Source: Olsenella profusa DSM 13989 (lineage in GTDB: Bacteria > Actinomycetota > Coriobacteriia > Coriobacteriales > Atopobiaceae). From it: DNA of 64,000 bases. Made by a program: the position numbers and the translations under genes. Positions within the stretch are counted from its first letter, which is position 1, and every line of letters begins with the position of its first letter. The stretch covers positions 1,550,001-1,614,000 of the forward strand of contig NZ_JAUSQK010000001.1 in the NCBI RefSeq assembly GCF_030811115.1, given 5' to 3'. Shown one piece after another: positions 26,821 to 40,262 of this stretch. Under the pieces are notes generated by a model, which worked only from the letters and a program-made list of their open reading frames with translations, searched no databases and was not told where the DNA came from.

Positions 26821-26939
26821 ATGTGGGTGCGATTTGATTCGTGTGGGTGCCAATCTCCCTATCACAGTCGACAAAACCCCAGTTCAGCGAGAGCGGCAGG
26901 ATGCGATTCGCACCCACACGCAGCAAAAGGCACCCACAG
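26821..26939 (+). repeat. palindromic word array, 20-base period (CACCCACAC family, copy 1)
   Basis: The word (A/G)TGTGGGTGC occurs at 26821 and 26841. Its reverse complement GCACCCACA occurs at 26910 and 26930. Both blocks have 20-base spacing, with about 60 bases between them. It occupies the 315-base gap before comF, which otherwise shows no gene. Confidence 0.8.
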
Positions 26940-27881: not shown

Positions 27882-28170
27882 GTTCCGTTCAGGTCTGTGG
27901 TTGCGGGTGGCGCGCTTTGGCAGGTCTCCCTAGTCCATGGCAGACGAGGTCAAAAGGATCCACGTAAGCCGGGCGTGAGCGTGCCGGCGAGCATGGCTCG
28001 TCCTAGAAGCAAGTCGTACCGTCCGCGGCTGGGGGCATCTGGCCCCACGGGCGAGAGGGCCGATAGTGGGGGGCCGTAGCCCCGAAGCGAAGGCTCCCGT
28101 ACGCGAGTGTGGGGTCAAATACCAGGTCAGCTGGAGGGAACAGGGAGGGGACGGACGCCCTTGGCGGGCG
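27882..28170 (+). ncRNA. structured RNA candidate, probably raiA-type RNA
   Basis: The 396-base gap between comF and the next gene has no plausible coding frame but several GC-rich stem-loops: GCCGG/CCGGC (27968-27988), GAGC/GCTC (27989-28000), a G-run/GGCCCC hairpin (28031-28046), and GGGGG/CCCC (28068-28083). Short single-stranded A-rich joins lie between (GGTCAAAAGG, GGGTCAAATACC). raiA RNAs of Firmicutes and Actinobacteria are typically found beside comFC and raiA/hpf, and both genes are here. The class is assigned from context and remembered features; ends are approximate. Confidence 0.5.
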
Positions 28171-38436: not shown

Positions 38437-38510
38437 ATGTGGGTACCAATCGTTGCATGTGGGTGTCAATCGATTCATGTGGGTGTCTTTCTCCCGAAAG
38501 TCACCCACAA
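38437..38510 (+). repeat. 20-base-period word array (CACCCACAC family, copy 2, left block)
   Basis: ATGTGGGT(A/G)(C/T) occurs at 38437, 38457 and 38477, exactly 20 bases apart, with near-identical linkers (CAATCG..). One inverted word (GTCACCCACA) follows at 38500. It lies just outside the IS110 element. Confidence 0.78.
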
Positions 38511-38573
38511 AACCGCACATATGTTCGTCGGCCTGTCAAGTGAGACATTTTTAGCAGAGCTCGCCAGCCCCTA

Positions 38574-38886
38574 GATAGCTAAGCCAGGGGCTGGCTTCCA
38601 AACCCTTTGGGCTCTCATCTTCCTGCGTGTCCTCATAGCGGATAAAAAGATCTATCCAGCTTCGGATGCTTCACATGCGATCCACTCACATATTCGCGGG
38701 TCTTCGGTTATACACTGAGCCGCACTACGATGCTTTCGGTATAGATGGAGCCGCATGACCACCGCATAAGGTGATCTGTCAGGTCTCACACATGACCCCT
38801 TTGGCTGCGTGTGCGGTTTTCGCGGGTCATCTTCACGCATCGATGATAAGAATGCTCGAAAGGATGTGGCTCTGTCAGTGGCAGGC
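38574..38886 (-). ncRNA. untranslated IS110 end, possible bridge RNA locus
   Basis: This is 313 bases without a coding frame, lying 3' of the transposase gene. It contains stem-loops, for example ATGACCC/GGGTCAT (38792-38798 with 38824-38830), and a degenerate direct repeat around TTCGGTATA...GAGCCGCA (about 38706 and 38735). IS110-family elements express a bridge RNA from a non-coding end (the 3' end in the IS1111 subgroup). The RNA itself is not demonstrated, and strand and ends are uncertain. Confidence 0.3.
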
Positions 38887-40026
38887 CTAGGCCATGGAGC
38901 CTATCCCAGACTCCACCTTAAGCCCAATTACCCAAATCCAACAAGCAAGCTCGCGCACCACCGCCACTCTTGCGACGTTGGGATGTTTGCCTGAATCAAC
39001 AAGCTCGTCAAAGCGGGACTTGAGACGTCTGTTGGCCTTACGGGCAAGTCGCCCAATCTCAGGCGACACCCCACACGTACGCACATGCCTCTTGGTATAG
39101 TCCTTCCTTCTGCAGATGGATGCAGGACCCTCAATAAGCAAGCGGCGCAGAAGGGTCGGCCCTTCCCTGGGGATGTGCCCGGGGCTGCATCTTGGGCCAC
39201 CTGAGCGATCGGTTGCAGAACATCCTATCCACCGAGAGACCTTCCTGCCTGAGCTAAAGCGAGAAAGGCTCCCAAACTCGGCTGCCGCAGGAAGAGCAGT
39301 GGCACTGCCTATACCCAAGGGCAAAGAAATCGCATCAACATAAGGTGCCCAGCGCAAAGACTGACGGAGTCCCTCTACACTCTCTTTGAAGGCAGCACGG
39401 CTCTCTTCTAAGGCGCAGAGCCCTCCAGGCATGAGTTTCGGTGTGAGACTTGCGCCCTCACATCCCAGATCACAGCTTGCGACCCAGGCTCTGTAGGTCG
39501 CAGTATGAGTTGACTTCAATCTTCCTGAGGAGGTCCTCTCGTTCCAAACGCAGCCATGTCTAAGAAGAAAGGCTGCTATCCTGCGCCTCCGTGAGCTTAC
39601 AAGAGTAGCCGGGGATGTGTACGCTCTCACGAGGTCACGTGCCCCTTCGGTCTCACGATCAGGAATCCAGACGTAGGAAATGTCACTTGCGGGACTGGGC
39701 ATCTCTCTCAAGAGTATCGATGCGTCATTGCGATCGTTTTTGTGCCGGTTGTTCTTCGGGGACTTAGGAATGCTTGTTGCCGCAGCAATGTCACAGCTGA
39801 AGCCTGCAGCCTTCAGTGTGCGAGCAAGCTCATGGCCCGTACAGCCCGACTCGTACGCAAGGCGCACGGGCTGAGGTAGCTTCCCCAGCCACTCAAGAAG
39901 GTCCAAGACCATAGTAGAGCCACGAAGGCAGTGCTCCTTTACCTCTCCCGAAGTGACAACAGGCGCCTTGCACACGATACTCCTGGCGTGAACGTCCATT
40001 CCTACCTGCGTGGTATGCTCCCTCAT
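38887..40026 (-). CDS. IS110-family transposase (DEDD recombinase)
   Basis: A 379-residue transposase that looks intact. The N-terminal RuvC-like DEDD domain shows 'GMDVHARSIVCKAPV' (D), 'RLAYESGCTGHELARTL' (E) and 'KNDRNDASILLR' (D, D). The C-terminal Transposase_20 domain has 'SLPLGIGSATALPAAAEFG' and the serine region 'GCSATDRSGG'. IS110 enzymes recombine DNA guided by a bridge RNA. Codon usage is less GC-rich than the neighbours, fitting recent arrival. Confidence 0.9.
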   Translation of the reverse strand: MREHTTQVGMDVHARSIVCKAPVVTSGEVKEHCLRGSTMVLDLLEWLGKLPQPVRLAYESGCTGHELARTLKAAGFSCDIAAATSIPKSPKNNRHKNDRNDASILLREMPSPASDISYVWIPDRETEGARDLVRAYTSPATLVSSRRRRIAAFLLRHGCVWNERTSSGRLKSTHTATYRAWVASCDLGCEGASLTPKLMPGGLCALEESRAAFKESVEGLRQSLRWAPYVDAISLPLGIGSATALPAAAEFGSLSRFSSGRKVSRWIGCSATDRSGGPRCSPGHIPREGPTLLRRLLIEGPASICRRKDYTKRHVRTCGVSPEIGRLARKANRRLKSRFDELVDSGKHPNVARVAVVRELACWIWVIGLKVESGIGSMA

Positions 40027-40192
40027 GAAGGCCCCCTTTCTTCTCTTTGTGACCCTGGCTGAGGTTTGATGGTCTCATGCTGGCTCACGACTCAGGAGAC
40101 AAGGGGGCTGTCTTGCTTTGGAGGAGACAGCCCACCAGCCTCTAAGCCGATGAACATATCGTCAGGTCGAGGGAAGCCAAGCCGGGAGATTA

Positions 40193-40262
40193 GCACCCAC
40201 ACGCGGCAGATGGCACCCACACGCGGCGGATCGCACCCACACGGATCGATCGGGACCCACAC
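40193..40262 (+). repeat. 20-base-period word array (CACCCACAC family, copy 2, right block)
   Basis: Four copies of G(C/G)ACCCACAC start at 40193, 40213, 40233 and 40253, exactly 20 bases apart. They are inverted relative to the block at 38437, which lies on the other side of the IS110 element. The rest of the 475-base gap to the next gene holds the IS end (including a hairpin around 40105-40133) and no gene. Confidence 0.8.

What the first reader, a model, noticed from the sequence alone, without database searches (positions are those of the whole stretch)
26821..26939. 20-base-pitch GTGTGGGTGC array before comF
Two forward and two inverted words at exact 20-base pitch. The same word recurs at 38.4 kb and 40.2 kb with the same pitch, so this is a dispersed family within one window.
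Basis: seen in the sequence. Interest (0 to 1): 0.55.

Follow-up and report, generated by a model that had tools for sequence, protein, structure and literature searches.

The report
Repeat family tied to AbiEi-like gene

Summary
The site (26822-26938) is one of 33 intact copies in an Olsenella profusa-like genome, plus 2 weak and 2 split copies. Arrays of TGTGGGTGC point inward at about 20-bp pitch around a 59-bp core, fixed in 32 of 33. The words at 38.4 and 40.2 kb are the halves of one copy, split by an IS1111-type element whose noncoding region carries guide stretches matching the core centre. Core columns are constrained between two strains.

Two near-identical copies bracket the genome's only detected member of a protein family (P0001, 338 aa) with a weak AbiEi-like region and nuclease-like conserved residues. 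The family occurs in 171 of 395 Coriobacteriales genomes. Of 30 such loci, 25 share a word of 12 nt or more on both sides of the gene, against 3 of 30 in distant windows. In two other genera the bracketing word is also dispersed at fixed spacing (70 bp, 51 bp).

My reading is a REPIN/RAYT-like system with an AbiEi-like protein in place of the Y1 transposase. Binding, cleavage and mobility are inferred, not shown. My literature searches (capped listings) showed no description of it.

The parts
26822..26938 (+). whole element: 2 inward words, 59-bp core, 2 inward words
   Evidence: model R1 E 1.6e-14 in the own genome, though it is one of the sequences R1 was built from
26821..26830 (+). outer left word (ATGTGGGTGC)
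26841..26850 (+). inner left word (GTGTGGGTGC)
26842..26918 (+). 77-bp core unit (word, 59 bp, inverted word), aligned with the other copies in A1
26871..26885 (+). conserved centre ACAAAACCCCAGTTC; its CA at 26880-26881 lies at the dyad axis
   Evidence: axis in other genomes:
26910..26919 (-). inner right word, inverted
26930..26939 (-). outer right word, inverted (one mismatch)
38438..38517 (+). left half of a second element (3 words, left core up to ACAAAACCG-CA), interrupted at its centre
38518..40162 (-). IS1111-type insertion sequence; it lies in a 1663-bp block (38506-40168) identical to G000 1020863-1022525, which also lies in a repeat element
38887..40026 (-). IS110/IS1111 DEDD transposase, 379 aa
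   Evidence: PF02371 above its cut-off; PF01548 and NF033542 just below theirs
38780..38820 (-). guide pair in the noncoding region downstream of tnp: AAAACCGCA (38820-38812) and GACCTG (38785-38780), matching the two strands of the element centre
   Evidence: 12 of 200000 shuffles have AAAACCGC and GACCTG within 60 nt
40163..40262 (-). right half of the second element (CAGGTC half core and 4 inverted words)

Best explanation
The finding is one copy of a dispersed population of binding-site palindromes that belongs with one resident gene. SHOWN: about 37 copies in the genome (33 intact, 2 weak, 2 split); inward word arrays around a core of fixed length; sequence constraint at the sites; the genome's single detected P0001-family gene bracketed by two near-identical copies; the same gene-plus-dispersed-palindromes arrangement, with other words and another fixed spacing, in two further genera; shared words on both sides of most family genes tested. 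INFERRED: the AbiEi-like protein binds the words, pairing across the core, as AbiEi and Rv2827c do at their own promoters; extra 20-bp-pitch words add binding sites; the C-terminal part (invariant E, D, E-x-D-G, K) is a PD-(D/E)XK-type nuclease that cuts at or near the centre; break repair copies or rearranges the elements, so that gene and repeats persist together like RAYTs and REPINs. The IS1111 element is a parasite that uses the conserved centre as its RNA-guided landing site.
For: 33 intact copies, 32 with a 68-bp word-to-inverted-word distance; the first pitch is 20 in 57 of the 60 arms that have a second word, 21 in two and 19 in one (my count). P0001 at G000 180201-181217 lies between elements 179964 and 181349, whose cores are identical, and in F0195 between the corresponding two; one family match in each strain. 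The word family has 34 model matches in each O. profusa genome and 2 places in one other genome among 140 of the family. Family-gene flanks: inverted repeat within 450 bp in 23 of 30 loci against 4 of 30 at 990-1450 bp, p 1.3e-6; shared word of 12 nt or more up/down in 25 of 30 against 3 of 30 far and 17 of 235 cross-locus pairs, p 1.1e-8 for the far control. The 30 include both O. profusa strains and two other close pairs, so they are not fully independent. Second set: 15 of 20 with an inverted repeat in the flanks against 6 of 20 inside the genes. G027: bracketing word GTTCTCTATGC in 6 clusters per 400 kb, spacing 70 in 6 of 6. G033: CATCTGGATATGC in 4 clusters per 400 kb, spacing 51 in 4 of 4; four shuffled words each gave 0. 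AbiEi: one PADLOC model matches 26 of 28 family members at E up to 0.1, best E of any AbiEi model 8.4e-13, for P0001 itself 2.3e-6. Between strains, 7 of 52 core substitutions fall in the 31 of 77 conserved columns, p 2.5e-5. AbiEi and Rv2827c bind paired 23-bp inverted repeats (PMC3985639, PMC7319586, passages read).
Against: No binding, cutting or movement was shown. Flush target duplications of 3 nt or more in only 2 of 33 and no clean empty site in the strain comparisons made. Structure prediction failed (pLDDT 34), Pfam gives only weak AbiEi_4 (6 of 28) and nothing for the C-terminus, NCBIfam AbiEi 2 of 28 at best 0.03, and no PDB relative was found, so the nuclease reading rests on conserved residues read by eye. 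In other genomes the dispersed ACAAAACCGCAGGTC elements mostly do not share words with the family genes fetched there (4 of 23 share 13 nt or more, control 5 of 460), and five genomes with clear elements (G039, G090, G091, G094, G117) are not among the 171 with a family gene; the listing does not show which of them were searched. The centre motif was found beside only 1 of 28 non-self family genes and is absent from the G033 elements. 7 of 28 non-self loci showed no nearby inverted repeat by my rule. Counted with indel bases, the strain comparison is 20 of 87 differences in conserved columns. One cluster of the O. profusa word (up to 1 mismatch) also turned up in the G027 sample.
Confidence: 0.6

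Rival explanations
1. Global regulator: the P0001 protein is a non-mobile, AbiEi-like repressor or chromosome-organising protein and the roughly 37 palindromes are its operators, conserved for host gene regulation or nucleoid structure.
For: Constraint at the sites between strains; 29 of 33 elements are spanned by one match in the second strain; AbiEi proteins are known autorepressors on inverted repeats.
Against: Sites have no consistent relation to gene starts and 13 of 35 are between convergent genes; of 10 neighbouring genes scanned, 8 have family matches and these are of unrelated kinds; the word pair and the element model are not found in three other genomes of the genus; words are shared on both sides of the gene, not only upstream.
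Confidence: 0.22
2. Ordinary MITE family: non-autonomous remnants of an insertion sequence with complex, multi-site ends (IS21-like), moved by a transposase now lost.
For: Palindromic, intergenic, dispersed; inward word arrays at about 20-bp pitch resemble the multi-site ends of some transposons (recalled); IS21-type elements exist in the genome.
Against: None of the 20 IstB or rve loci inspected (of 20 and 26 matches) has these words; flush target duplications in 2 of 33 only; conserved and free columns evolve differently; words track a gene without a transposase match in three genera.
Confidence: 0.12
3. RNA or single-stranded DNA hairpins (transcript-end elements or REP-like hairpins) are the functional form.
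For: Five stretches tested fold well (z -3.3 to -8.1), as any palindrome must; in genome G151 the arms differ between copies in matching ways (by eye); convergent gene pairs are mildly enriched, p 0.035.
Against: In O. profusa the two arms vary nearly independently, with a weak excess at pairs 11/67 and 19/59; arrays of repeated words add little to a hairpin; no Rfam match to the element at gathering score in the window, and none over it in 20 related loci except tRNA.
Confidence: 0.05

Closest known systems
REPIN / RAYT systems (REP doublets with Y1 tyrosine transposases), PMC3116915 (passages)
   Same: Dispersed extragenic palindromes of two inverted units, lineage-specific sequences, a single-copy gene per family flanked by copies of its own palindrome, long-term residence; REPs are also targets of IS110-family elements (PMC1525189, passages).
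   Different: The bracketed gene has no Y1/HUH match and looks AbiEi-like with a nuclease-like tail; arms are arrays of words at 20-22 bp pitch in several lineages; a conserved asymmetric centre sits at the dyad in many families.
AbiE type IV toxin-antitoxin systems (AbiEi, Rv2827c), PMC3985639, PMC7319586 (passages)
   Same: AbiEi-like region in the protein; inverted repeats of comparable size (11-bp identical part, 23-bp box) next to the gene; two repeat pairs in tandem known for Rv2827c.
   Different: Repeats on both sides of the gene and dispersed over the genome; C-terminal part with E/D/E-x-D-G/K invariants not mentioned in the passages read; no AbiEii partner was looked for with a model.
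IS1111 / IS110 elements with seekRNA or bridge RNA (PMC11187229, PMC11208160; passages)
   Same: The element at 38.5-40.2 kb has subterminal inverted repeats, the long noncoding region downstream of tnp and two guide stretches in the IS1111 order, and inserts at one point of a palindromic repeat, as ISPa11 and IS621 do in REPs.
   Different: It targets this new repeat family; no RNA was mapped.
BOX / MITE-type modular intergenic repeats (recalled, not tested)
   Same: Modular, intergenic, variable number of units.
   Different: Fixed core, inward arrays and a bracketed cognate gene.

Membership tests
REPIN / RAYT | extragenic palindromic doublets dispersed in many copies | tested here: met
   (33 intact copies; 2 of 35 sites flagged inside small predicted ORFs by a home-made caller)
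REPIN / RAYT | cognate single-copy gene flanked by the palindromes | tested here: met
   one family match in G000, flanked on both sides; other genomes hold several different family genes, and dispersal of the bracketing word was tested for only two of them
REPIN / RAYT | gene is a Y1 (HUH) transposase | tested here: not met
   no Y1 or transposase family for P0001 or any of 28 family members
AbiE type IV TA | AbiEi-type antitoxin domain | tested here: met
   weakly: a PADLOC AbiEi model matches 26 of 28 at E up to 0.1; Pfam AbiEi_4 only 6 of 28, best 1.4e-4
AbiE type IV TA | adjacent AbiEii nucleotidyltransferase toxin gene in an operon | not tested
   only the left neighbour (polA) and a gene further left (HAD hydrolase) were scanned
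AbiE type IV TA | protein binds the inverted repeats | not testable with these tools
   -
MITE | terminal inverted repeats with target duplications | tested here: not met
   2 of 33 with a flush duplication of 3 nt or more; other offsets not tested
IS1111 group (element at 38518-40162) | IS110-type transposase | tested here: met
   PF02371 34.5 bits against cut-off 21.3; PF01548 27.7 against 29 and NF033542 132.8 against 140, both just below
IS1111 group (element at 38518-40162) | subterminal inverted repeats, long noncoding region downstream of tnp, guides matching both target strands | tested here: met
   criteria from PMC11187229 passages

The most novel reading that the evidence does not exclude
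Coriobacteriales carry a previously undescribed class of gene-plus-palindrome systems in which a hypervariable AbiEi-like DNA-binding protein with a nuclease-like tail maintains and spreads its own genome-wide population of word-array palindromes: a functional analogue of RAYT/REPIN that evolved from an antitoxin-type regulator, with word specificity turning over between species, and with some lineages acquiring a common 17-bp centre that IS1111 elements use as a landing pad.
Probability: 0.35. Interest if true: 0.88.

Novelty: new variant of a known kind. Interest (0 to 1): 0.72.

Why it matters
Bacterial palindromic repeat populations with a cognate gene are known to me only with Y1 transposases. 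A second, unrelated protein family with the same genomic logic would show that such partnerships arise repeatedly, and would give many naturally diversified protein-word pairs (171 of 395 genomes carry the gene family) for reading out how AbiEi-type proteins choose DNA. It would also account for dispersed intergenic repeats in Coriobacteriales genomes and add a new natural target class for RNA-guided IS1111 elements.

Tried and rejected
IS21-end origin of the words: the 20 IstB or rve loci inspected lack them. Target duplications: none convincing. RNA family: Rfam gave nothing for the elements at gathering score. Covariation along the core: weak, pairs 19/59 and 11/67 above most shuffles, the rest near expectation. 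Element polymorphism between strains: the three extra F0195 elements compared (C69:7871, C69:19081, C6:105272) lie in DNA that mostly did not match the G000 stretches fetched, so no empty site was found; a fourth (C20:9399) was not placed. P0001 homologs in viral contigs: no match or none confirmed. Structure of P0001 without an alignment: useless, pLDDT 34; no fold search was run on it. Word match between dispersed centre-motif elements and family-gene flanks in other genomes: mostly negative. Centre motif beside family genes: 1 of 28 loci. The first flank scan used shuffled flanks as control (22 of 30 against 26 of 140); a second ignored strand (19 of 30 near, 8 of 30 far) and was replaced. 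Dropped rows: one search used 31 of 33 cores (one duplicate and the 76-bp core left out); one search kept 89 non-redundant sites with at least 60 bp on both sides; one search covered 29 of 33 elements.

Full report
Observation. The window holds forward words at 26821 and 26841 and inverted words at 26910 and 26930, each pair at a pitch of exactly 20. A single word is only marginally enriched in the window (16 against 9.0 expected) but the spaced pair is not a chance event (7 against 0.13). In the whole genome the exact word occurs 83 times against 10 for the reversed control and the exact spaced pair 44 times against 0.

Anatomy. Scanning the stretches around these words gives 33 intact elements: an innermost word, 59 bp, and the inverted word, a start-to-start distance of 68 bp in 32 of 33 (67 in the other; the F0195 counterpart of 989580 carries a 5-base insertion). 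Further words extend outward, 1 to 6 words on a side by a rule allowing 2 mismatches; the first pitch is 20 in 57 of 60 arms with a second word (21 in two, 19 in one), later pitches are mostly 20, 21 or 22 with some of 24 to 32. The core mostly has TTTCTCCCG and CGGGAGAAA ends and an asymmetric centre, consensus ACAAAACCGCAGGTCGC, with columns T13, C14, A30, C39, A40, G41 and T43 invariant in the 31 aligned copies. A sequence model from these cores finds the same 33, two weak copies and two copies in halves.

The 38.4 and 40.2 kb words. They are the two halves of one element. Between them lies an IS110/IS1111-type insertion sequence whose other, identical copy in the genome sits in the centre of another element. 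Both insertions are at ACAAAACCG[CA]GGTC. The long noncoding region lies downstream of the transposase and contains AAAACCGCA followed by GACCTG, the two guide stretches in the order described for IS1111 seekRNAs (PMC11187229, passages read); 12 of 200000 shuffles of that region have AAAACCGC and GACCTG within 60 nt.

Age and constraint. The organism is Olsenella profusa-like: strain F0195 carries the same family and appears as the same species. Of the 33 elements, 29 are spanned by one match in F0195, with 1.1% differences in the flanks. Of 52 substitutions in these cores (my count from the list, indels left out), 7 fall in the 31 conserved columns of 77 (p 2.5e-5); with indel bases the count is 20 of 87. 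So the sites seem kept by selection, or by conversion, where they are. Array lengths differ between strains: at element 179964 the long array has 4 exact words and 1 near word in G000 and 7 exact and 1 near in F0195, and at 181349 it has 5 against 2.

Wider spread. The word family is otherwise found only at two places in one other genome among 140 genomes of the family; two more genomes have weak partial matches to the core. The centre alone is different: CAAAACCGCAGGTC occurs in 129 of 297 Coriobacteriales genomes, while the reversed control occurs in 6 by my reading of the table. Of 89 non-redundant sites from 40 genomes (F0195 among them), 53 lie inside inverted repeats above the 99% null level, in 21 genomes, with lineage-specific arms, and 33 of those 53 share one dyad axis, at or next to the C of CCG-CA-GG. 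Outside the order the motif is also common (81 of 396 genomes of a phylum sample that includes some of the order, reversed control in 4 by my reading; viral contigs at least 120, a capped list, against 9 for a scrambled pattern that lacked the one two-fold position) but without arms (2 of 117 viral sites and 1 of 15 other actinobacterial sites). Some of these sites directly follow tRNA genes and look like terminators. What the bare motif does is open.

The partner gene. In both strains one 338-aa protein gene (P0001, G000 180201-181217) lies between two near-identical elements, and one family match was found in each strain. The family is found in 171 of 395 genomes of the order (at most 5 candidates were scored per genome, so counts per genome are lower bounds). 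Around 30 such genes, 23 have an inverted repeat within 450 bp, against 4 of 30 in windows 990-1450 bp away, and 25 of 30 share a word of at least 12 nt between upstream and downstream flanks, against 3 of 30 far windows and 17 of 235 cross-locus pairs. A second set of 20 genes, taken from genomes with the centre motif, gives 15 with a flanking inverted repeat against 6 with one inside the gene. The words differ from gene to gene, apart from close relatives.

Dispersal in other genera. In G027 the family gene closest to P0001 outside O. profusa (50% identity) is bracketed by GTTCTCTATGC elements with the centre ACAAAACCCCAGTTG or a variant; 20 sampled stretches of 20 kb contain 6 such elements, all with a 70-bp spacing and some with extra outer words. 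In G033 the bracketing word CATCTGGATATGC occurs in 4 elements per 400 kb, all at 51 bp, two of them away from the gene, without the central motif. Four shuffled words in each give none; the G027 and G033 words do not occur in each other's sample, while one cluster of the O. profusa word does occur in the G027 sample. So the shared feature is gene plus dispersed cognate palindrome at a fixed spacing; word arrays and the common centre are additions in some lineages.

The protein. 27 aligned members are 38-48% identical to P0001 and share with it invariant E211, D244, E258-x-D260-G and K264. A PADLOC AbiEi model matches 26 of 28 at E up to 0.1, Pfam AbiEi_4 weakly 6 of 28. A PD-(D/E)XK nuclease in the C-terminal part is my reading of the invariant residues; no library and no usable model supports it. 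AbiEi and Rv2827c bind paired 23-bp inverted repeats at their own promoters, the latter two pairs in tandem (PMC3985639 and PMC7319586, passages read), which fits the arms and arrays here.

Against. In 23 other gene loci tested, the dispersed centre-motif elements of the same genome share 13 nt or more with the gene flank in only 4, though the control is 5 of 460, and five genomes with good elements are not among those listed with a family gene. Movement was not seen: no clean empty sites, no convincing target duplications. Gene segments bounded by elements are present in one strain or species and absent in another in two cases, but homologous recombination between repeats explains that.

Verdict. 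The best reading is a REPIN-like population tied to an AbiEi-like protein. I found no description of it in the held literature (searches; capped listings, of which I saw titles and starts of abstracts).

Noticed in passing
window 27884-28139: raiA RNA (RF03072), 159.5 bits, downstream of comF.
   Followed up: no
G000 1264519 to 1270111 (L020) against F0195 L118: A 5.6-kb segment with an ABC transporter gene pair lies between two elements in one strain; F0195 has a single element there and lacks the segment.
   Followed up: partly
L231 (G236), L240 and L241 (G230), L243 (G302): A segment of about 4 kb between two elements in G230 seems missing in G236, where one element carries the left flank of one copy and the right flank of the other.
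   Followed up: partly
L022 near 1374226 and L008 near 381554: DNA identity between the two O. profusa strains jumps at the element, from 88% to 98% and from 98% to 93%.
   Followed up: partly
viral contigs, e.g. L299, L333, L347: The motif ACAAAACCGCAGGTCR is very common in phage contigs without inverted arms; in three loci it lies beside genes that look by eye like HNH endonuclease and terminase genes.
   Followed up: partly
viral loci L336, L359, L362: The same motif stands between arrays of CTCACGC words at 11-12 bp pitch (by eye).
   Followed up: no
L157, L172, L179, L417, L419, L444: The centre motif directly follows tRNA genes; in several of these it is one arm of a terminator-like hairpin.
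   Followed up: partly
G000, e.g. 38369, 996562, 2571939: 13 rve matches with the same score in a 530-aa frame in one genome, and an IS21-like element with its own GTGCACG end repeats.
   Followed up: no
L198-L202 (G151): Five elements with about 30-bp arms in which changes in one arm are matched in the other.
   Followed up: partly
genus g4 loci (e.g. L184, L185, L284, L445, L456): GAGAAGAAC or part of it recurs both in dispersed elements and beside P0001-family genes.
   Followed up: partly
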